From the NCBI GenBank assembly GCA_945873625.1, contig CAMCDS010000011.1:1-64000 (forward strand): a stretch of 64,000 bases of DNA. The letters run 5' to 3'. A model generated the notes under the pieces. The model made no database searches and was not told the DNA's origin. It worked only from the letters and a program-made list of their open reading frames with translations. This document shows, piece after piece, positions 24,245 to 48,561 of this stretch. A program made the position numbers and the translations under genes. The DNA is from an uncultured Porphyromonadaceae bacterium (GTDB lineage: Bacteria; Bacteroidota; Bacteroidia; Bacteroidales; Muribaculaceae). Within the stretch, counting starts at the first letter, position 1, and each line of letters starts with the position of its first letter.

Positions 24245-25582
24245 ATGTTACTGAGATTTGCGGCAGACAATATCATGTCATTCAAAGAGGCGGTGGAGTT
24301 CAATACTTTTCCGTCGAGCAGAAGCCATAGCCACGAGTGGCATAAGGTTTCGTGCGGTCATGCCACGGCCTTGCGGATGAGTGCCATTTACGGGGCCAAC
24401 GGCGCCGGCAAAAGCAATCTTCTGAAATGTATTTCACTGTTGAAATCTATGGTGGGTGCAGAAAAATTAGGAGATCTGGCATTGACGGATGACCTGTATT
24501 TCCGTCTTGACGAACAGGGGAAGGCAAGGCCATCCGAGCTTGCGATTGAGTTCTTCGCCAATGGCAGGATATTCTACTATCATATTGTTTTCAACAGACT
24601 GGAGGTTATAGAGGAAGAGCTGATGCTCAGTCAGAAAAATAAGGATATACCCATATTCAGTCGTAAAAACAATGACGTGAATGTTCGGGCTGAATATCTG
24701 AGACCGGGAGACAAAGGAAATTTCATAGAGGTTTTCCTTGACGCAATGAACAGAATAATCCGTCCGGATATGCCGGCTCTGTCATTTTTCGGCCAGTATT
24801 ACCCTGAGGAACTGCCACTGGTCAAAGACGCTTTTGACTGGCTGACACATCTTCAGGTGGTGCTTCCGGCAATGCGTATCGGCTATCTCCCCCATGTTCT
24901 CGACGGAGACAGTGACTTTGCAGACCTTGTGAATAATGTGATACCGGAGCTGAAGACCGGCATATCAAGGCTAACTGTCCGCAAAGAGATTATCAACGAA
25001 GAGGAGACGCGTGGAAACTCGGCCATATCGAAAGCGCTTGCAGCTGCAAAAGAAAAGCCGGGCAAGCCTCAGATGTTGGCGGAAACCCGAAACGATGAGA
25101 TTTCCAATATAGTTGTAGAAGACGGCATTGCATATCTCAAGACTCTCGTGGCGATACATACCGATGCCAATGGTCGTGATGTGGAAATGAACATGACTAT
25201 GGAATCGGACGGAACGAGGCGCCTCATAGAATACATGCCTTTGCTGTATGCCGTTCTCAAACGAGACAATGTGTTTGTGGTTGACGAGATAGAGCGCAGC
25301 ATACATCCGATAATGATTAAGACACTTATGAGCAAAATATCGGAAAACAGGGAAGCACGCGGACAAATCATTTTCACAACCCATGAAAGCTGCCTGCTCG
25401 ACCAGTCCATTTTCCGTCCTGACGAGATATGGTTTGCCCAGAAAGATGTAAATCAGTCAACACAGCTTTACCCCCTAAGCGACTACAACATACACAAGAC
25501 CGCCAATATCGAGAACGGCTATCTTAACGGACGATATGGTGGTATTCCGTTTTTGTCAAATCTCACTGATCTGAAATGGTGA
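24245..25582 (+). CDS. rloA: AAA family ATPase, RloA/AbiLi-like
   Basis: MLLRFAADNIMSFKEAVEFN... Walker A YGANGAGKSN, Walker B VFVVDEIERSIHP; adjacent RloB. Confidence 0.85.
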   Translation: MLLRFAADNIMSFKEAVEFNTFPSSRSHSHEWHKVSCGHATALRMSAIYGANGAGKSNLLKCISLLKSMVGAEKLGDLALTDDLYFRLDEQGKARPSELAIEFFANGRIFYYHIVFNRLEVIEEELMLSQKNKDIPIFSRKNNDVNVRAEYLRPGDKGNFIEVFLDAMNRIIRPDMPALSFFGQYYPEELPLVKDAFDWLTHLQVVLPAMRIGYLPHVLDGDSDFADLVNNVIPELKTGISRLTVRKEIINEEETRGNSAISKALAAAKEKPGKPQMLAETRNDEISNIVVEDGIAYLKTLVAIHTDANGRDVEMNMTMESDGTRRLIEYMPLLYAVLKRDNVFVVDEIERSIHPIMIKTLMSKISENREARGQIIFTTHESCLLDQSIFRPDEIWFAQKDVNQSTQLYPLSDYNIHKTANIENGYLNGRYGGIPFLSNLTDLKW

Positions 25583-25583
25583 T

Positions 25584-26273
25584 ATGATAACACGTCGTAA
25601 GGATTACAGCAAACATGCTCCCTCAAAAAATGCCAGTAAGATATATATAGTCTGCGAAGGTGCCGAGACAGAGAAAAACTATTTCGGATTCTTTGAAGGC
25701 CTGTCATCAAATCTTGAGCTTATCGTGATACCTCCGGAAGAAGGCACTGACCCGTTGAAACTTATGGAGTTGGCACATCGTGAACTATTAGGCGAAACGA
25801 GGACTCATACACTTGATTTCATGCAGAACGACAAAGTATGGTTTGCCATAGATACCGACACATGGGAAGATGAAGGCAAGATCCAGCCTTTACGGGACTT
25901 CTGTGCAGACCAGAACGGCCATATATCAGACAAGTATGATGAAGTCAAGCCATATAAGGCATGGAACGTCGCGCAAAGCAATCCATGTTTCGAGATATGG
26001 CTATATTACCACCACTATGAGTCGGCTCCCGAAATCGAGGATATAGATAAGCATCGGTCCATGAAGGCATTTGTCGACAGCTCCATAGCTGGCGGATTTG
26101 ATTACCAGAGAGACCCGGTCAGACTTAAGGACGCAATAGAAAACGCCAAAAGAAATTTCAAGAGGAAGGATAACGGCAATCCCGGTTCATTCTCCACTGA
26201 GCAATATCTTTTGGGAAGTGAAATCATCGGATTCGTAAATACCGAATTACAGAAGTTGCGAAATAAGCTATGA
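25584..26273 (+). CDS. rloB: RloB-like (AbiLii-like) TOPRIM-type protein
   Basis: IYIVCEGAETEKNYF, WFAIDTDTWED, SNPCFEIWLYYHH motifs of the RloB family; 1 nt after the rloA stop. Confidence 0.85.
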   Translation: MITRRKDYSKHAPSKNASKIYIVCEGAETEKNYFGFFEGLSSNLELIVIPPEEGTDPLKLMELAHRELLGETRTHTLDFMQNDKVWFAIDTDTWEDEGKIQPLRDFCADQNGHISDKYDEVKPYKAWNVAQSNPCFEIWLYYHHYESAPEIEDIDKHRSMKAFVDSSIAGGFDYQRDPVRLKDAIENAKRNFKRKDNGNPGSFSTEQYLLGSEIIGFVNTELQKLRNKL

Positions 26274-39571: not shown

Positions 39572-39847
39572 TTACTTACGAATACCGAGCTCTTTCTTGG
39601 CGATGATGGCGCGGTAGCGGTTGATGTCTTTGCGGATCAGATAGTCGAGAAGGCGACGACGCTGACCTACGAGAGCCTTCAGCGAGCGGGCGGTAGCGTA
39701 GTCCTTGTGGTTGCCTTTCAGATGCTCGGTCAGGTGCTTGATGCGGAACGAGAACAGAGCGATCTGGCTTTCGGGGCTGCCGGTGTCAGTAGCGCCCTGG
39801 CCGTAAGTAGCGAAGATTTCAGCCTTCTTTTCGGAAGTAAGATACAT
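39572..39847 (-). CDS. rpsO: 30S ribosomal protein S15
   Basis: DTGSPESQIALFSFRIKHLTEHLKGNHKDYATARSLKALVGQRRRLLDYL. Confidence 0.97.
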   Translation of the reverse strand: MYLTSEKKAEIFATYGQGATDTGSPESQIALFSFRIKHLTEHLKGNHKDYATARSLKALVGQRRRLLDYLIRKDINRYRAIIAKKELGIRK

Positions 39848-39945
39848 AATATGAGAGAATTAATAAAGTTAATAAAAAAAGCCTTTCTTTAAAAAGCCCG
39901 GCCGCGGCTCTCTCTGCCCGGACAGCTTTTTGGCAAAAGACGCCG

Positions 39946-40021: not shown

Positions 40022-41602
40022 TTATATTAGGTGGGTTACGTTGATTTTCTTGTACTTGCTACCCATGCCGAGGGCAAAAGCCATCTGGTCTTTTATGATA
40101 AGCTCGCCCTTTTGCAGTCCGGCAATAGCGGTGCGGATCTCTTGTAGTTCCGTGCCGCTTACGCCGAAAAGGTCTTTGATAACCTTGTCGTCGATTGTCT
40201 GCTGCTTCATAATCAAGGGGTACTGCGCGTTAGCATAGAAGTCGAAGCCCTTGTTTTTGAAGTCAGCCATATTCTGCGTAGCGAGAATAATAGACAATCC
40301 CTTATTGCGACCTACCGCAATAAGGTTGCGGAGCGGGCGGTTGTCGAAACTCAACATATAGTGAGCCTCGTCGATAATCGAGAAGTGGCGAATCTGCACA
40401 ACATCATCGTTGACGGCTTGCTTGTCGAGTTGTTCATAGATGTTGTTGAGTTTTGACATAAGGAAGTAAACGATGGCTTTTGCTATCGGGCCGTCCTTTG
40501 GATAGCCGTCCATCTTAACGATGAAGCTGTCGCCGACAAGGTCAGCTTTATCCTCCGTGTCAAAGATGTTGGCACGGTCGAGCTGTTTAAGAATCGACGA
40601 GATAGAATCGTCCTTGTCGGGGTCTTTCATTCGAGCCTGATATTCTTTGCGCATATCGGTGAATGTTATAGGCGCACCGTTGGTTCGTTTGTAACATTCC
40701 ACGATAGCCTCGCTCAAACGATTGCTCATATTTGAGCTTGGCGAAAGGCGGTCGAGCGATGCAAGAGCCGAAGCCATTTCGGTAGAATACAGGTTTATCT
40801 CGTTGATTGGGCGGTTGGTGAAGTCCTTGAAAGGAGTGAACGGCAGCGGTCGCTCTATCGGGTCGAGTATGCAAGAGCGGTCAACGTCGAAGTTTGATAG
40901 CCAGTGGTTATTCTGAATATCGCTGAACTCGCCTTTGTAGTCAAACAGAAGGAAGTTGACCGGATAAGCACTTTCGGAAGATAGAGCGCGAATCTGCTGC
41001 ATCAACACGGCAAGAAGATTGGTCTTGCCCGAGCCCGTGGCTCCCGCGATAATGATTTGAGCATTGGTGATGGCCCGGCTGTTAATATCGAGCTTTGCTT
41101 CCATCTCGGCATCGCCATAGTTGCCGATAAGCAGATTCAGAGCAGGTATATCTTTGGCAAGCGCGGCGCGGCCACTTTGCGAGAACAGATAGTTTTCGAG
41201 ATTGTTGTCGGCGAGAAGCGTGTCGCGCCCGCGATACATCTCTGCGCCGATTATGCGCGATAGCACACGGTTGTTCCCCAAGTCGAGCGAAGTGTCATGG
41301 TAGCGCATTTTGATGAGCGCCGAGTAAAGCGGCGACAGCTCCTGATGGGTGAAGAAGCTCGGCACAAACCGGTTGCCCTGTTGCAGCTTCATAGAGTCAA
41401 CAACGGCTTCATCGCGTTTGCCGGGTGTCGAAAGGCCTGCGAGCAAACAGATACGCATCAGCTTATTGTTGGGAATTGCATAGCGACGCTCATTGCCTGC
41501 GGAGCGCGAAAGATTGATAAGCGATTCTATCTTCTCTTTGAGCGGCGCAAACTCCGAGTTGAAATTTTCGGGAACGTATATATCTCCAAATTGTAGTGGC
41601 AT
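40022..41602 (-). CDS. HerA/FtsK-like ATPase of an extended R-M operon
   Basis: Walker A IIAGATGSGKTNLLAV, Walker B FSIIDEAHYML, sensor-like ILATQN. Confidence 0.8.
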   Translation of the reverse strand: MPLQFGDIYVPENFNSEFAPLKEKIESLINLSRSAGNERRYAIPNNKLMRICLLAGLSTPGKRDEAVVDSMKLQQGNRFVPSFFTHQELSPLYSALIKMRYHDTSLDLGNNRVLSRIIGAEMYRGRDTLLADNNLENYLFSQSGRAALAKDIPALNLLIGNYGDAEMEAKLDINSRAITNAQIIIAGATGSGKTNLLAVLMQQIRALSSESAYPVNFLLFDYKGEFSDIQNNHWLSNFDVDRSCILDPIERPLPFTPFKDFTNRPINEINLYSTEMASALASLDRLSPSSNMSNRLSEAIVECYKRTNGAPITFTDMRKEYQARMKDPDKDDSISSILKQLDRANIFDTEDKADLVGDSFIVKMDGYPKDGPIAKAIVYFLMSKLNNIYEQLDKQAVNDDVVQIRHFSIIDEAHYMLSFDNRPLRNLIAVGRNKGLSIILATQNMADFKNKGFDFYANAQYPLIMKQQTIDDKVIKDLFGVSGTELQEIRTAIAGLQKGELIIKDQMAFALGMGSKYKKINVTHLI

Positions 41603-41606
41603 GGCG

Positions 41607-43607
41607 TTACTGGTTTAATTCGATTCCAAAATAGCCGTCGCTGACGGTAGTTCTCTGTTCCTCCACGTCGCGATGAAGCGTGAATGTCTTTGAGATGAAA
41701 GCTTCGAGCTTCTTATAATCACTGTCGGGGCGCACCTCCGAGGTGGTGCAAAGGAGGATTGTCTGCTCGGCAAGGTTCGGGAAATATTCCTCGAAAAGCA
41801 TCTCGCGGCTCTCATTGTCGAGCACACCCATCACGGTATCAATCATCACGGGAGGATTGTAGTCACCAAGGTTGCGAAGCACTTTCAGAAGCACTTGAAT
41901 AAAAATCTGCTTTGAGGCAGCGTTAAGCTGATTGAGCGAGATTTGGTTTCCTTTTGTATGGAAAATTCTAATATTGAAGTTTTCCATGCTGTCGCTCAAC
42001 TCCACACGCCCGATATGTCCTTTGTATGACACGAGCAAGCGGTTGAGTTGCTGCTGCATCTCACTTTCAATCTGCGCCTTTTTCTTTTTGAGCAAGCTGT
42101 CGGCGACTTTCTCGAAGAACGGTTTAAGCTTGACGAGGGTATCATATTTCAAATCCGGCTCTTGCTGAATCTGCACATCATAGCGGTGTATGCGGTTGTC
42201 GAGTTTTTGAATCTCTTGTTTGAGCTGCCCCTCGGCAATCTTGGCTTTGTCGAGTTTGCGCTGACTTTCCTCGTAGTTGGATATAATAAACTCGTTACCA
42301 CCGGCGCGGGTCTGTTCGAGGTTGTTTTTCTCGGTGCGCAATTCCTCGATAGTTGCGAGAAGCACTTCGAGATCCTGACGTTGACGGTAGAGAGCCACAA
42401 ACTGATTGTTGGCACCACGGTTCACGAGCGATTTCAAGGCGGCAATCTCTGCATTGTCGAGATAATCAAACGGGTCTTGGCGGTTGGTGGTGTTCTGCAT
42501 GGCGACCATGTGGCGCACCACGTTTTCCTCGTCAACTTCGGGCGAGCAGAGCGACAACTCTTTGAGGTAGTCGATTATCTTTGCGGTAACGTCGCGAAGC
42601 GTTTCCAAAGGATACGCGCCGGTGCTCGAATTGGCGAGTTCGTCCTTGATCCGAAGAATATTGTTAATCTCCACGGAGAGATTAGCTGCCATTTTAGGAA
42701 GGAAAACATTGATTTCGATGTTTTCCATAAAACCCTTTATGTCCTCGGCGTAAGATGCGGCACGGCGAACAATATCATCAATCTTTGCCGTAATATCCAC
42801 AATGCGCTTATTGAGCGCGGCACTTTGCTGCGCGCCCTCTTTCGCTTTGTGATATTCGGTTTCCATCGACGTGAGATACTTATACAGTGCATCCTGTTCG
42901 GCTATGCAAGCGTTGAGGTCGGCAGTGAATTTATCCTTTTGGCTGACGAGTTCGTTATACTCGGCAGCCTCCTGTTCGGCTTGCAAGCGTTGTTGCGCCC
43001 AATCTTGCTGCAACTTCTCGGCGGCACGTTTGAGTTGGAGGTATTTCTTGAAGCCGAGCACATTCTCGAAGTTGTCGCGGATGGTCTGGGCGAACACGTT
43101 CTTTTTGAGAAGTTCGCTCGACTGCATGGCGTCGAACAGGAAATACTGGCTCAACTCCTGTGGGAGATTTGCCTTGATAATCTTGTTGACCTCCTGCTCG
43201 TTTTTGATGCGCTCCTTGGGCGCTGTCATCGTGCCGTACACAAACATATTGCCGTTCATGTTAAGGCTGACACTTTCGAGCGGCCGTCCTGCGGGATTGA
43301 GGATATATGTACGTTTAAGGATGTATTTCTGCTCCTGGCCAAGCACTTTTCCGCTGAAAGTAATCTGCAGGCATATTTCTGGCTTGACCTGCCCGACGGC
43401 ACCTTGATTCACAAGCTCCATGAAGTGGTCGCGGTTCTCGATTTTGAGGCCATAGAGGGCACCGCTTATAGCCTCAAACAAGGTGGTCTTACCGCCGCCG
43501 TTAGAGCCGCCGATAAGGATAATGGGGCGTTCCTCGTCAACTGTTAAATCGAGGTCGAGGTCAAGATATGTCTTGTAGTTGCTGACTTTGATTCTCTGAA
43601 TAAGCAT
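41607..43607 (-). CDS. DndD-like SMC/Rad50-type ATPase
   Basis: Walker A IGGSNGGGKTTLFEAI, long coiled coil, C-terminal VMIDTVMGVLDNESR resembling the DndD IDTPLGRLD motif. Confidence 0.8.
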   Translation of the reverse strand: MLIQRIKVSNYKTYLDLDLDLTVDEERPIILIGGSNGGGKTTLFEAISGALYGLKIENRDHFMELVNQGAVGQVKPEICLQITFSGKVLGQEQKYILKRTYILNPAGRPLESVSLNMNGNMFVYGTMTAPKERIKNEQEVNKIIKANLPQELSQYFLFDAMQSSELLKKNVFAQTIRDNFENVLGFKKYLQLKRAAEKLQQDWAQQRLQAEQEAAEYNELVSQKDKFTADLNACIAEQDALYKYLTSMETEYHKAKEGAQQSAALNKRIVDITAKIDDIVRRAASYAEDIKGFMENIEINVFLPKMAANLSVEINNILRIKDELANSSTGAYPLETLRDVTAKIIDYLKELSLCSPEVDEENVVRHMVAMQNTTNRQDPFDYLDNAEIAALKSLVNRGANNQFVALYRQRQDLEVLLATIEELRTEKNNLEQTRAGGNEFIISNYEESQRKLDKAKIAEGQLKQEIQKLDNRIHRYDVQIQQEPDLKYDTLVKLKPFFEKVADSLLKKKKAQIESEMQQQLNRLLVSYKGHIGRVELSDSMENFNIRIFHTKGNQISLNQLNAASKQIFIQVLLKVLRNLGDYNPPVMIDTVMGVLDNESREMLFEEYFPNLAEQTILLCTTSEVRPDSDYKKLEAFISKTFTLHRDVEEQRTTVSDGYFGIELNQ

Positions 43608-43618
43608 GGCGAGGAAAT

Positions 43619-43840
43619 TTATTGTTTGATTTTCTGAATCGCCGTACGGATAATATCTTCCGTAGTGGCATCGTCAATTTCTATCACGTCAACTTTTTTA
43701 GCGTGATAGGCTTTCAAGATTTCCTCGCTCAACCAGTCGAAATCAATCTGTTCGGCATCGCAGATGGCCTCAATCATATAGAGGTCATCGCGGCGTATAC
43801 CGTAGTGAACGAATTTTTGGTCTATTCCTTTGTTGCTCAT
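43619..43840 (-). CDS. Small (73 aa) protein between R-M and ATPase genes
   Basis: ATG ORF filling the gap in a tightly packed operon; MSNKGIDQKFVHYGIRRDDLYMIEAICDAEQIDFDWLSEEIL... Confidence 0.7.
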   Translation of the reverse strand: MSNKGIDQKFVHYGIRRDDLYMIEAICDAEQIDFDWLSEEILKAYHAKKVDVIEIDDATTEDIIRTAIQKIKQ

Positions 43841-43843
43841 ATC

Positions 43844-46210
43844 TTACGCTTGTTGTGGATAGAAACTATTCCAGTTCAATGTATCGGTGGTGTTTTCGAT
43901 AGGCAGCGGTGAGTACAGCCAATTCGAGCCTCGCTGCAAGATGACTCCACCGGCGAGCGGTTGCTCAGCTGTGCTGTTCTCCTTAATATATTCAAGCAGG
44001 GCATTATGTTTATCGGCGGCAAACATATCGCTTCCCGCACTCTTTGTATCGAAAAGATAGAAGTGTCCGTTTTTCATGCGGATAACGAAGTCCACATAAA
44101 AAAGCGCCTTTTCGCCACCTTGCCCTTTGTGGTATTCAATGGCGTAATTGGCTTTACCATTATCGCCGTTTTTATACCACCAGTCAATATACAGTGTATT
44201 GGCTTCAAGGAATTTGACAAATTCCTTTTCGGGATTTGAAGCGGCATTAAGCTGAATGAACGGTAGAAGTGCGTGGTTTTCAGCGGGGGCAACTTGGTTC
44301 GTTTCCGCGTCATATACGCGCTGTTCAGGCACTTCCCAATCATGTTCTTTATATACGCGAGCGGCTGCGGCTTTTGCGGCAGCGACTTGACGTTTGCGGG
44401 CATACTTTTCAAGAGCCGTTTCAAGAAGCCTGTCGAACTTGGGGCGGTTTTCGTGATAGAGTACAACTTTCTTCGCGTCTGTTTCATAGATGCCGAAGAA
44501 GTCAGCTATTAGTTCGGTGAGAAAGCTTGCTATTTTGTCGGTACGTCCTTTCCGTTCGAACTGACCGCCTTTGCCATCGATGTAGGCAATGAAAACGCCG
44601 TCAATCTCGCCTGTGGTACGGGCAAACTTGGCACGTTCCACCGTCAAGGTCTGCACTTCATTCTGGAAGTGTACGTCCTTGGGGATTTCGATGTTGATAG
44701 TCTTGACATCGAGGCGAATTGAGTTCTGAACACGACGGCGGTTTTCGTTGATGGTTAAATCGTCGGTTTCGGGGAGTGGCTGATAATCTTCATCTTCGCC
44801 ACGCATCGCTGCAAGCTCGGCTATGGAGAAAAGTCCGGCGCCCTGTTCGAGTTTCCAGAAATTGGTAGCCTCGTCATAGAGGACTTTTCGGAAGTCGGGA
44901 CCGAGATAGTTACGCTCAATGTTCGGTCGCTCTGAGTATACGGCTTTGAGCGATACGTTGCATAGATTAGCGCGACGATGTGCGGTAATCGTGTCGCTCA
45001 AAATGTAACCGGCATCGGCGGTTACAATATCAATCTTATCTTTGGCAATGTCAGTATAGACGTAGCCAACATTCAGCAGCTCATTGGGATAATGCCTTTG
45101 CTCCGGCATACGGAGTATGCGTCCGACGGTCTGAATGGTGAACTGGTCGCTCGACAGCTTGCGGAAAATAAGCAGTACGGCAGCACGAGGGCAATCCCAG
45201 CCGAGAGCAATAGCTTCCTTGAAAAGAAGCACCTGTGCGAGATTGGTAGGGTTTTCAAGCCCGTCGAGGTTCGACTTCTCGTTAGAGAGCCACACGGCGA
45301 GCTTGCCGTTTTCCTCGGTGATGTCGCACATATATTTAAGGTAGGTCTTGACCTGCTCCGCCACCTTTTCATCTTCCGTAGTCATGGATTCCTTCTTGTC
45401 GTTGGGAAGCTGAATGAGCAGAAGCGGATTGATGTTGATGCCCAGCGATTGATAAGCCTCGGCGATTTGGTTGCGCTTTTCGAGCGCGGCCTTAATCAAT
45501 CGCTCGTTCATGGCTATTTCGTCCTCCGAGCCGTTGATGTCGATTTCGGGGTTGAGCACCACCTCTTTTTTAATCATCTCGGCGGCGATAACGTCCTGCC
45601 GATACACTTTTGTGCGCTCGTCGGGGTGAGATGTTTTAGGAGTAGCCGAGATGCGGAGTTCCACGGCGGGATTGATACGTTCAAGCACCGCCTTTGTTTT
45701 GTCGGCTGTGTTTGACCAGAACATATGTTCCTCGTCGATCACTGCGACAATAGGCAAACCGAGTTCTTCCTGTGTGCGTCGAGTTATTTCATAGAGCGAT
45801 GCGGAGCTTTCGCTGTCGCGCACCATCAAGTTCTTCTCTTTGTTGACACTCTCCCAGTTGACGAACAGAATCTCGCCCGGCTGAATACCCTCGCTTTGGT
45901 CGAGTTCGTCGAACATTACCGGGGTGAGCTTTCGAGTTTCGCCGAAAGCACCTTTGAGGCTCATGTAGCTTTGGAGATGAAGTTTTCGAGGTGCAAACCA
46001 AATAAAGGCGCACTCCTTGAAGCGACTGTCGCCACGTGTGCGCAGCTCGTCAACAATGTTAGCGAGCGTCTGACAGGTCATAACGGTTTTACCTGCTCCG
46101 GTCGGAGCCTCGAAAACAATCTTACGGCGCGAGCCGCCAAGATTAAGTAGCTTTACAGTCTTGTCGGTAAGCTCGCTAATAGCGTCCTGTTGATATTTCA
46201 GCGTTTTCAT
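43844..46210 (-). CDS. res: Type III restriction enzyme Res-like helicase-nuclease
   Basis: DEAD-like motif I APTGAGKTVMT, VIDEEHMFW, SATPK, QTVGRILRMPE; C-terminal PD-(D/E)xK-like YVDFVIRMKNGHFYLFDTKS. Confidence 0.88.
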   Translation of the reverse strand: MKTLKYQQDAISELTDKTVKLLNLGGSRRKIVFEAPTGAGKTVMTCQTLANIVDELRTRGDSRFKECAFIWFAPRKLHLQSYMSLKGAFGETRKLTPVMFDELDQSEGIQPGEILFVNWESVNKEKNLMVRDSESSASLYEITRRTQEELGLPIVAVIDEEHMFWSNTADKTKAVLERINPAVELRISATPKTSHPDERTKVYRQDVIAAEMIKKEVVLNPEIDINGSEDEIAMNERLIKAALEKRNQIAEAYQSLGININPLLLIQLPNDKKESMTTEDEKVAEQVKTYLKYMCDITEENGKLAVWLSNEKSNLDGLENPTNLAQVLLFKEAIALGWDCPRAAVLLIFRKLSSDQFTIQTVGRILRMPEQRHYPNELLNVGYVYTDIAKDKIDIVTADAGYILSDTITAHRRANLCNVSLKAVYSERPNIERNYLGPDFRKVLYDEATNFWKLEQGAGLFSIAELAAMRGEDEDYQPLPETDDLTINENRRRVQNSIRLDVKTINIEIPKDVHFQNEVQTLTVERAKFARTTGEIDGVFIAYIDGKGGQFERKGRTDKIASFLTELIADFFGIYETDAKKVVLYHENRPKFDRLLETALEKYARKRQVAAAKAAAARVYKEHDWEVPEQRVYDAETNQVAPAENHALLPFIQLNAASNPEKEFVKFLEANTLYIDWWYKNGDNGKANYAIEYHKGQGGEKALFYVDFVIRMKNGHFYLFDTKSAGSDMFAADKHNALLEYIKENSTAEQPLAGGVILQRGSNWLYSPLPIENTTDTLNWNSFYPQQA

Positions 46211-48114
46211 TCCTCGCCTCCTTCCTGACTGAACAGCCCACCGATTTCATCATCATCGCCCCCGGCAAGTGCATCTTCCTCCTCGGTCGGCTCGATTGGT
46301 TTCTGCCTATGCTTCGGCAGTATTCGCTTATATGTGTTGTAGATTGCTTGTGGCAGAGCGCAGAGTTCCACCTTGTCGCTGACCGGCTCGAAACTCGCCT
46401 CCCACGGGTCTTCGCTTGGCGAGAACACATAAACCTTGATTTTCGAAGTGGTTTCCACCGAACCTATCATCTTGACGATTTCATCAACATATCGTTCATC
46501 GTAGATGACGAGCATTTTCTTATCGCCGTGCTCAAAATAGCGATAGATGTTTTTGTAAGTCGGGAGTCCGGCAAACGACTTTTTCTCTGCATAAAGGTTT
46601 TCCTTTATGCAGAGCATATCAGTGGAGAGCTGAACCAAACGTCGCATATTTTTAGTGGAGCGGCTGCGACCCACAAAATCCGTGCGATAATAGCGGAGGT
46701 TGTTGTTGGCAAGTCCGTCAACTTCTTCGCCGTTTGGCTTCGTATATCCCTGAATCACGCGCTTGTTGCGCTCGTAGGTTACATTCTCGCAGATGCCGTT
46801 CTCGTTGTTGGTGCAGAGAATACAGGTGCGCTTGCCGCCGTCTTCTGCGTTCAGCTGCATTACAGCATGGAGAGTAGTGCCGGAACCGGCGAAGAAATCG
46901 AGGATACGAGGATTGTCTCTGAAAGCAAGTAAAGAGGCTATAATAAATCGGTCTTTAGGATTGTTAAAAAGTTTCTCTCCTAAAATAGCATCAAGTTCTG
47001 CTGACGCTCCTCTTCCATCTTTATAAAAGACCGTAGAGGGCATTTCAAATTCCATATCCTTAAGATATTTCTTAATTTTGGGAACAGTTGTTTCCGTTTC
47101 TCCAAAATATATTCTTCCCTCATCAACTAACCTATCCAATGTTGATTCTTTCCAACGCCATCCTAATCGTGGAACCGCTGTTGGCTTCTTCGTTATTGGA
47201 TGAATCAAAGGTTTATGACACCTTGTTTCTGGCCTATCAGGAGCGCAAGAATTATCAGCAAAGAAAAGGCCGTTATCGTCTACATAGTTGTAATGCTTTG
47301 AGCCATAAGCAGGATCATTTTCCTGAAGTGTTGAGAAGAATTTGCGTATTTCCGATTGTATTTTTATATTGTCTTCTCCATATTTTCTTCGAAGCTCCCG
47401 ATATTTAGCATAAATCTTGTCTAATCCCTGCTTTTTCGTTTTCCATGACATTTCAGGATTATCAATCAATGTTCGATTCTTTGCATAACAAAGAATATAT
47501 TCTTGATTTACACCCACAAGATTACCAGAACTCTTTTTACCTTGCTGCCAAATAAATTGGCAGATAAAATTTCTTTCTCCGAAAAGACCTCTATCTTTAT
47601 CGTCTAAAAGTATTTTCAGCGCGTGTAATTCATTGTCATCTATTGAAATGAATATAACGCCACGGTCAGAAAGAAGTTTTTTAGCGATGCGCAAGCGACG
47701 CGACATAAAGGAAAGCCATTTTGAATGGCGATAGCTATCTTCGCTATCAACAAAAGAGTCGTTGTAAACGAAGTCTTTGTTGCCTGTGTTGTATGGCGGA
47801 TCTATATAGATTACGTCGATTTTACCTGCATGGGTATATGCGAGGGTGGCAAGGGCTTCGAGGTTGTCGCCCTCGATAAGAATATGATTGGGAGCATCTG
47901 GACCGGCATCAGTCAATGCTCGTTCTTTGTCCTCGATTAGTACAGGAAGCTCGTTGCGCAGTCGTTCTTCAACATCTTCGGGCTTATCTTCCCACACAAG
48001 GCCGTAGGTTTTGTGTTCACGGAGAAGTCCGAGAAGCGCCGAGCGTTCATCGTCGGTCAACCCCTCCAAGGTGTTGATGCGGTCGATTAGCTTATGTCGG
48101 TCAGTCGCTTTCAT
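46207..48114 (-). CDS. mod: Type III-like site-specific adenine DNA methyltransferase (Mod)
   Basis: Beta-class order: YIDPPYNTGN (motif IV) then FFAGSGTTLHAV (motif I); 4-nt overlap with res. Confidence 0.92.
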   Translation of the reverse strand: MKATDRHKLIDRINTLEGLTDDERSALLGLLREHKTYGLVWEDKPEDVEERLRNELPVLIEDKERALTDAGPDAPNHILIEGDNLEALATLAYTHAGKIDVIYIDPPYNTGNKDFVYNDSFVDSEDSYRHSKWLSFMSRRLRIAKKLLSDRGVIFISIDDNELHALKILLDDKDRGLFGERNFICQFIWQQGKKSSGNLVGVNQEYILCYAKNRTLIDNPEMSWKTKKQGLDKIYAKYRELRRKYGEDNIKIQSEIRKFFSTLQENDPAYGSKHYNYVDDNGLFFADNSCAPDRPETRCHKPLIHPITKKPTAVPRLGWRWKESTLDRLVDEGRIYFGETETTVPKIKKYLKDMEFEMPSTVFYKDGRGASAELDAILGEKLFNNPKDRFIIASLLAFRDNPRILDFFAGSGTTLHAVMQLNAEDGGKRTCILCTNNENGICENVTYERNKRVIQGYTKPNGEEVDGLANNNLRYYRTDFVGRSRSTKNMRRLVQLSTDMLCIKENLYAEKKSFAGLPTYKNIYRYFEHGDKKMLVIYDERYVDEIVKMIGSVETTSKIKVYVFSPSEDPWEASFEPVSDKVELCALPQAIYNTYKRILPKHRQKPIEPTEEEDALAGGDDDEIGGLFSQEGGEE

Positions 48115-48152
48115 GGCGATTCATTAGAATCGCGGATTCTCCTCGCGACAAT

Positions 48153-48228
48153 TTTGGTCGGTTTTTTAATAAAAAAGCGTGAGAATCTGTACTTCACATA
48201 TTCTCCAAGCTCGGAAAAACCGACCAAA
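48153..48228. repeat. 14-nt perfect inverted repeat upstream of mod
   Basis: tttggtcggttttt (48153-48166) and aaaaaccgaccaaa (48215-48228); further direct copy tggtcggttttttt near 48387. Confidence 0.7.
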
Positions 48229-48561
48229 GTTAAACCGATTACAGCAGAATATGCTTTTCGAGACCTCACGCCGGTATATACAGCCACCCAAAACTCACCC
48301 CATGCCAAAAGGCAAGGAATGAGCCCGGATAGGTATGGACATACCCGTGAGCATCTACTTTAGCATTATTCTTGGCTGTAAATAACTGGTCGGTTTTTTT
48401 GCTTGGCAAGAATAAAGCGCGAGTAAACGCCTTTTATTTTTACCTCCCGCCTCGCTTCCTCTCGCGGAAGACGCACGGCGTGAGTCTATTTGCAAAATTA
48501 CTAAATTATTCTGAAACAGGGGGCACCGGAGGGCTAAAATGTACAATATACTTTTCCAATA

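What the first reader, a model, noticed from the sequence alone, without database searches (positions are those of the whole stretch)
40022..48114. Five-gene Mod-Res-small protein-DndD-like-HerA-like operon: candidate extended type III R-M / anti-phage system
Seen: five co-directional genes packed with overlaps or short gaps (mod/res overlap 4 nt; 3-12 nt gaps thereafter), between rpsO and a pullulanase gene. Established: type III R-M needs only Mod and Res; DndD-like SMC ATPases belong to phosphorothioation (Dnd) loci; HerA/FtsK-like ATPases occur in several defence systems. Inference: this is one defence machine in which a type III core is coupled to an SMC ATPase and a DNA translocase. No DndB/C/E, BREX PglZ/BrxC/BrxL or DISARM DrmA/B partners were seen. 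I do not know whether this exact architecture has been named; that needs a search.
Basis: partly seen in the sequence, partly recalled or inferred. Interest (0 to 1): 0.85.

Follow-up and report, generated by a model that had tools for sequence, protein, structure and literature searches.

The report
Restriction system with optional DNA-motor cassette
Gut Bacteroidales carry a standard two-gene DNA-cutting immune system to which a portable three-gene set of DNA-motor proteins, related to the phosphorothioate (Dnd) machinery, is repeatedly attached, which suggests that one motor module can be plugged into restriction systems with different target sequences.

Summary
The five genes are real, intact and packed as described. 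They form two modules. Module 1 is a type III R-M pair: Mod (EcoP15I-Mod-like, intact m6A motifs, hypervariable target domain) and Res (SF2 helicase plus PD-(D/E)xK nuclease). The genome has no DndC, so this is not phosphorothioation.

In 247 genomes of the family, DndD occurs in 14, and all 14 carry this Res (P about 6e-14). Another 20 have Res (up to 95% identical) without DndD. The cassette label changes 7-10 times on the Res tree. DndD and HerA distances correlate at 0.98, Res and DndD at 0.26, Mod target domain and DndE at -0.08. Switches fall at the Res stop/SP start.

This is a new variant of a known kind: the published DndD-DndE/HerA core, here attached to type III R-M as a specificity-independent add-on. 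Most likely Mod-Res marks self and flags invader DNA, and the motor cassette then attacks or immobilises it (inferred). A conserved structured RNA leader, not in Rfam, precedes the operon.

The parts
48115..48510 (-). Leader of the operon with a structured RNA core at 48259-48490; starts just after a Bacteroidota -7 box (TAATTTTG)
   Evidence: Fold z-score -6.9; seven helices kept in 19 loci, 97% of cells paired, 8 pairs with changes on both sides, 0 of 500 shuffles as good; no Rfam match. Promoter box read from the sequence and recalled consensus
46207..48114 (-). mod: type III beta-class adenine-N6 DNA methyltransferase, 635 aa; DPPYN at residue 105, FAGSGTT at 408; target-recognition region about residues 181-390
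   Evidence: Pfam N6_N4_Mtase 2e-25, PADLOC MTase_III 2e-92, EcoP15I Mod 4.6e-57, motif conservation
43844..46210 (-). res: type III restriction subunit, 788 aa; SF2 helicase (Walker A residue 35, DEEH 158, QTVGRILR 360) and C-terminal PD-(D/E)xK-like motif (residues 706-725)
   Evidence: Pfam ResIII 3e-13, PADLOC REase_III 4e-16, motifs conserved in 46 sequences
43619..43840 (-). Small protein SP, 73 aa, Sp-DndD family (PbeB position)
   Evidence: Pfam PF20306 34.8 bits, cut-off 27.2
41607..43607 (-). DndD-type ABC ATPase with coiled coil, 666 aa; Walker A GGSNGGGKTT, signature LNAASKQ, Walker B MIDTVMGVLD; no CxC hook
   Evidence: PADLOC DndD 2e-57, TIGR03185 4e-51 but below its cut-off, alignment, motif conservation
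41165..41602 (-). DndE domain at the N-terminus of the HerA-like protein (residues 1-146)
   Evidence: AlphaFold2 pLDDT 88; the 11 best PDB matches are all DndE, TM 0.74, prob 0.95-1.00; weak by sequence
40022..41602 (-). DndE-HerA/FtsK translocase fusion, 526 aa; Walker A residue 187, Walker B DEAH 411, ATQN 441
   Evidence: PADLOC DndH C-terminal part 5e-30; PDB 7es4 DndH-C, E 6e-22, TM 0.86

Best explanation
This is a type III restriction-modification operon (Mod-Res) carrying an optional, co-inherited Dnd-type motor cassette (Sp-DndD, DndD, DndE-HerA). Mod methylates adenine at a sequence set by its exchangeable target domain and so marks self; Mod-Res recognises unmethylated invader DNA and slides or cuts (inferred from the family). 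The DndD dimer with DndE forms a DNA-looping clamp and HerA a ring translocase (inferred from the families). I propose that the cassette acts second: it is recruited to DNA that Mod-Res has engaged or cut, through surfaces independent of target sequence, and then translocates along, strips or immobilises that DNA so that it cannot replicate, with the small protein as coupler or brake. Shown: the architecture, the one-way dependence of the cassette on Mod-Res, the exchange of Mod-Res under the cassette, and the lack of co-variation between DndE and the Mod target domain. Inferred: all biochemistry and the defence role.
For: Co-occurrence: DndD in 14 of 247 family genomes, all 14 with this Res (P 5.6e-14), directly adjacent in the loci examined, Res-SP spacing 2-5 nt in most. 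Optional: 20 further Res genomes lack DndD, bare Mod-Res up to 95% identical; 7-10 changes of the label on the Res tree. Modules: DndD-HerA 0.98, Mod-Res 0.74, across modules 0.26-0.33; DndE against Mod target domain -0.08. Junctions lie at the Res stop/SP start. A Res-less cassette (L056) has broken frames, whereas a cassette-less pair (L110) has intact Mod-Res and a decayed SP. Catalytic motifs conserved. Precedent: Pbe genes B, C and D are indispensable and viral replication is blocked (PMC6459918).
Against: No phage or methylome data. The order of action and the effect on DNA are guesses. DndD has an unusual ABC signature (LNAASKQ), so its ATPase cycle may differ. Only one Res-less cassette was seen, and its frameshifts could be assembly errors. 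Weak cross-module correlation fits co-transcribed but independent systems too.
Confidence: 0.6

Rival explanations
1. The cassette is an independent defence system that shares only transcription and the immunity locus with the type III R-M pair (hitch-hiking), with no mechanistic coupling.
For: The two modules evolve nearly independently; Mod-Res works without the cassette in many genomes; other accessory genes (RhuM, Abi_2, DUF1016/YhcG, Fic) also enter these operons.
Against: No intact cassette was found without Mod-Res in 247 family genomes; it always sits directly after Res or after one inserted gene. Random islands would not give this.
Confidence: 0.22
2. The DndD-DndE/HerA complex is the real sensor: DndE reads a DNA sequence or its m6A state and directs Res to unmethylated sites, as a Pbe/Dnd-like system in which m6A replaces phosphorothioate and Res takes the place of PbeA.
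For: The gene order nuclease-SP-ABC-DndE is that of PbeABCD; DndDE cores with cytosine methylases instead of phosphorothioation are described (PMC10853773).
Against: DndE does not co-vary with the Mod target domain (rho -0.08; in pairs with DndD at least 85% identical the target domain has a median identity of 21% and DndE 82%), so it cannot read each Mod's site by sequence; Mod-Res persists without it.
Confidence: 0.1
3. The cassette is a backup or suicide arm held in check by the small protein and released when Mod-Res fails, for example when phage proteins inhibit it.
For: The dependence on Mod-Res is one-way; PMC10853773 proposes that the small protein of such systems is a releasable negative regulator.
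Against: No nuclease, toxin or other killing domain was recognised in the three cassette proteins, so killing would have to use Res or mechanical DNA damage.
Confidence: 0.08

Closest known systems
DndD with clade-3 DndE-HerA/FtsK fusion loci (Rakesh, Aravind and Krishnan 2024, PMC10853773)
   Same: DndD-related ABC ATPase next to a HerA/FtsK protein with DndE fused to its N-terminus
   Different: The published loci are described as a subset of phosphorothioation systems; here the modification partner is a type III Mod-Res and DndC is absent. Whether this group was among their unpublished neighbourhoods could not be checked.
PbeABCD / CxC ABC-ATPase systems (Xiong 2019, PMC6459918; PMC10853773)
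   Same: Order helicase-nuclease, small protein, DndD/PbeC-like ABC ATPase, DndE; some have methylases nearby
   Different: No CxC hook; nuclease is type III Res with a PD-(D/E)xK-like motif, not HKD/PLD; DndE is fused to HerA; methylase is type III adenine, not cytosine
Type III R-M (EcoP15I)
   Same: Mod homologous to EcoP15I Mod; Res with SF2 helicase and nuclease motifs
   Different: Three extra co-transcribed genes; Res has no sequence match in the PDB
DndFGH (DndH)
   Same: The HerA domain is closest in sequence and fold to the C-terminal domain of DndH
   Different: DndH is about 1700 aa with nuclease and methylase-like domains (PMC10853773); here the protein is 526 aa without them
MADS
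   Same: PADLOC mad8 matches the HerA protein (2e-21) and mad2 matches Mod weakly (3e-7)
   Different: The remaining mad genes (an eight-gene system, from my own knowledge) were not among the matches. The original paper could not be read here.

Membership tests
Type III restriction-modification | Mod: beta-class adenine methylase with DPPY before FxGxG and a central target domain | tested here: met
   DPPYN 105, FAGSGTT 408, hypervariable 181-390; EcoP15I Mod 4.6e-57
Type III restriction-modification | Res: SF2 helicase followed by a PD-(D/E)xK nuclease | tested here: met
   Motifs conserved in 46 sequences; the nuclease is assigned by motif only, no Pfam or PDB match to that domain
Type III restriction-modification | m6A methylation of one strand and cleavage that needs paired sites | not testable with these tools
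   Needs methylome and biochemistry
Dnd phosphorothioation | DndC sulfurtransferase | tested here: not met
   None in the whole genome (genome 99.7% complete)
Dnd phosphorothioation | DndD equivalog (TIGR03185 above cut-off) | tested here: not met
   174 bits against a cut-off of 246, though full-length
PbeABCD / CxC | CxC zinc hook in the ABC ATPase | tested here: not met
   Absent in the family, present in the Halorubrum comparator L064
PbeABCD / CxC | HKD/PLD nuclease fused to SF2 helicase (PbeA) | tested here: not met
   Res matches REase_III only and has a PD-(D/E)xK-like motif
PbeABCD / CxC | Small protein between nuclease and ABC ATPase | tested here: met
   Sp-DndD in that position
DndD with clade-3 DndE-HerA fusion | DndE fused to a HerA/FtsK ATPase and adjacent to a DndD-related ATPase | tested here: met
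   Fold search, adjacency, DndH-like HerA domain
DndD with clade-3 DndE-HerA fusion | HerA domain groups with clade 3 in a tree | not tested
   The published clade sequences were not at hand
DndFGH | Multidomain DndH of about 1700 aa with DndF and DndG | tested here: not met
   526-aa protein; only the C-terminal part of DndH profiles matched
BREX, DISARM, MADS | PglZ, BrxC/L, DrmA/B, or the complete mad gene set | tested here: inconclusive
   No such match among the five proteins beyond mad8 and a weak mad2; two of the tables were cut at 25 rows and the rest of the genome was not scanned for these genes

The most novel reading that the evidence does not exclude
SP-DndD-DndE/HerA is a portable, target-independent accessory that plugs into type III R-M systems of any specificity and changes the outcome of restriction, for example from cutting at paired sites to ATP-driven arrest or destruction of whole foreign replicons. 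The operon is further governed by a new structured RNA leader shared by several R-M operons of the family.
Probability: 0.4. Interest if true: 0.8.

Novelty: new variant of a known kind. Interest (0 to 1): 0.6.

Why it matters
Type III R-M is treated as a complete two-subunit enzyme. A three-gene DNA-motor module that is attached to and lost from it again and again, at one precise junction, would show that type III systems can be upgraded by a specificity-blind add-on. It would also show that the DndD-DndE core is not tied to phosphorothioation and can work with adenine methylation. Natural pairs with nearly identical Res, with and without the cassette, make the contribution of the motor module directly testable. 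If confirmed, the structured leader would be an RNA element tied to restriction operons in a dominant family of the gut flora.

Tried and rejected
- Phosphorothioation by an unlinked DndC: rejected, no DndC in the genome.
- Membership in PbeABCD/CxC: rejected on the CxC hook and the nuclease type.
- DndE by sequence alone: no Pfam match, hhalign only prob 58%, and the profile of the close family finds no DndE in the PDB at E<10. Only the fold search was clear, using an alignment that left out recognised DndE sequences.
- Viral contigs with the HerA query: nothing. Plasmids: only distant DndD and HerA relatives; of these I opened nine regions and saw no five-gene locus.
- Search for Res residues that mark cassette carriers: best column p 5e-5 in 1039 tests, not corrected for relatedness; not convincing.
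- Co-variation of DndE with the Mod target domain, expected if DndE read the methylation site: absent.
- Phase-variation repeats in mod: none found.
- Covariance model of the leader: the alignment exceeded the length limit; a DNA search was used instead.
- Papers: the ABC-ATPase classification paper (PMC7544218) was not held and no MADS primary paper turned up, so a description of a type III variant there cannot be excluded.

Full report
Observation. The window holds five intact, co-directional genes on the minus strand: Mod 46207-48114, Res 43844-46210, a 73-aa protein 43619-43840, a DndD-like ATPase 41607-43607 and a HerA-like ATPase 40022-41602. Mod and Res overlap by 4 nt and the other gaps are 3, 11 and 4 nt. 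The block is poorer in G+C than its surroundings. In at least nine genomes of the genus rpsO lies directly beside the pullulanase gene with no island between them. One of them, G904, carries a DndD 96% identical to this one on another contig. So the block is an insertion, and its relatives sit at other sites.

What the proteins are. Mod matches EcoP15I Mod (4zcf, 4.6e-57), and its DPPYN and FAGSGTT motifs are 97-100% conserved in 44 homologues; residues 181-390, the target-recognition part, are only 17-32% identical to the window's. Res has helicase motifs and a C-terminal VDF...FDTK motif, with the key residues 97-100% conserved in 46 homologues, and matches type III Res families. The nuclease is assigned by motif alone. 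The small protein is Pfam Sp-DndD, "found in certain Dnd DNA modification systems". The fourth protein is a full-length DndD relative without the CxC hook. The fifth protein has a HerA domain closest to the C-terminal domain of DndH (7es4, E 6e-22). Its first 146 residues, modelled with an alignment that left out recognised DndE sequences, match DndE structures: the eleven best hits are all DndE, TM 0.74 for the best. DndC is absent from the whole genome.

Two modules. In 247 genomes of the family, DndD was found in 14 and Res in 34; all 14 DndD genomes are among the 34 (P 5.6e-14), and in the loci examined the two lie together. The loci without DndD that I opened are bare Mod-Res pairs, with Res up to 95% identical to the window's. 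On a Res tree of 45 sequences the presence of the cassette changes 10 times, at least 7 of them forced by well-supported branches (a quick tree). Across 19 complete loci, identities of DndD and HerA correlate at 0.98, Mod and Res at 0.74, and Res and DndD at 0.26. In 51 pairs with DndD at least 85% identical, Res falls to 44% and the Mod target domain to a median of 21%, while the DndE domain stays at a median of 82%; target domain and DndE do not correlate (rho -0.08). DNA alignments with bare loci end at or near the Res stop, except in L110; alignments with loci that have a foreign Mod-Res resume 10 nt inside SP. The spacing from Res to SP is 2-5 nt in most loci. Intermediates exist in both directions: L110 is a bare pair that keeps a decayed SP, and L056 is a cassette that keeps only the last 51 codons of Res and has broken DndD and HerA frames. 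Broken frames could partly be assembly errors. The cassette thus appears to depend on Mod-Res and not the reverse.

Distribution. The five-gene form was found in Muribaculaceae and other Bacteroidales (records named Phocaeicola, Mediterranea, Prevotella). A contig binned as Akkermansia (L054) and one as Clostridium (L036) carry it too; they are probably misbinned, or the operon was transferred. More distant relatives have DndE-HerA (Pfam DndE above cut-off) with DndD next to a DndC-like gene (L014, L015, L062; named from reading the sequence) or next to a sigma-HTH protein plus a short ORF (L012, L013). A 50%-identical HerA protein also occurs without DndD nearby in G283 and G275.

How it most likely works. 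From families: Mod marks host DNA with m6A; Mod-Res finds unmarked sites and uses ATP to slide and cut; DndD with DndE is a DNA-looping complex; HerA is a ring translocase. From data here: the cassette sits beside Mod-Res of many target domains and its DndE does not follow the Mod target domain, so recruitment should use conserved surfaces or the state of the DNA (engaged, cut), not the sequence of the site. I therefore propose a second-stage effector that acts on DNA flagged by Mod-Res. The nearest experimental precedent is PbeABCD, where pbeB, pbeC and pbeD are indispensable, pbeA only partly needed, and viral DNA replication is blocked without visible cleavage (PMC6459918). This mechanism is inference; its detailed form has perhaps a one-in-three chance of being right, while functional coupling of some kind is more likely than not.

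Comparison with the known. PMC10853773 describes DndDE cores that recruit cytosine methylases in place of phosphorothioation, and DndE-HerA fusions beside DndD. The present operon extends this theme to type III adenine R-M. Eight paper searches found no description of that combination, but the library lacks many papers, including the key 2020 classification. Hence "new variant of a known kind" and not more.

The leader. Upstream of mod lies a conserved leader that folds far better than shuffled sequence (z -6.9). It has seven helices kept in 19 loci, with changes on both sides in 8 pairs and none of 500 shuffles as good. Rfam has no match. It was found in 24 of 247 family genomes, mostly before this Mod but also before what look by reading like another type III pair (L187, L188) and a PLD-helicase protein (L189), and as remnants. 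It may be a cis-regulatory RNA of R-M operons.

Limits. Most loci come from metagenome assemblies. Structures are predictions. The leader counts and the tree rest on related sequences. No function was measured.

Noticed in passing
window 48115-48510 (-), core 48259-48490: Conserved structured RNA leader upstream of mod, not in Rfam; also found before other R-M-like genes in the family. Candidate new cis-regulatory RNA of restriction operons.
   Followed up: partly
window 24245-26273 (+): Second small low-G+C block (0.45-0.47) with an AAA_21/AAA_15 ATPase and a RloB-like protein: an RloAB-type candidate defence pair.
   Followed up: partly
window 41607-43607 (-): The DndD-like ATPase has LNAASKQ where the comparators carry LSAGE/LSSGE-type ABC signatures; conserved in all 31 close homologues.
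   Followed up: no
L049, L054, L055, L057, L126, L043: Extra genes inside related operons: DUF1016/YhcG nuclease, RhuM (twice), Abi_2, a Fic/Bro-N protein and a protein without Pfam match, so the locus collects accessory genes.
   Followed up: partly
L010 9767-11497, L011 8718-10469: HerA proteins about 50% identical to the window's stand alone, without DndD, SP or Mod-Res nearby.
   Followed up: partly
window 39791-39904 (-): Sub-threshold Rfam match to the ribosomal S15 leader (35.2 bits, gathering 39.5) in front of and overlapping rpsO.
   Followed up: no
L054, L036: Contigs labelled Akkermansia and Clostridium carry the Bacteroidales operon; probably misbinned, or transferred.
   Followed up: no
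L012 4750-6954, L013 5188-7188: Distant DndD and DndE-HerA loci carry a protein of about 670-730 aa (sigma-70 region 4 and helicase-associated domains in L012) plus a short ORF in the SP position: another partner of the same core.
   Followed up: no
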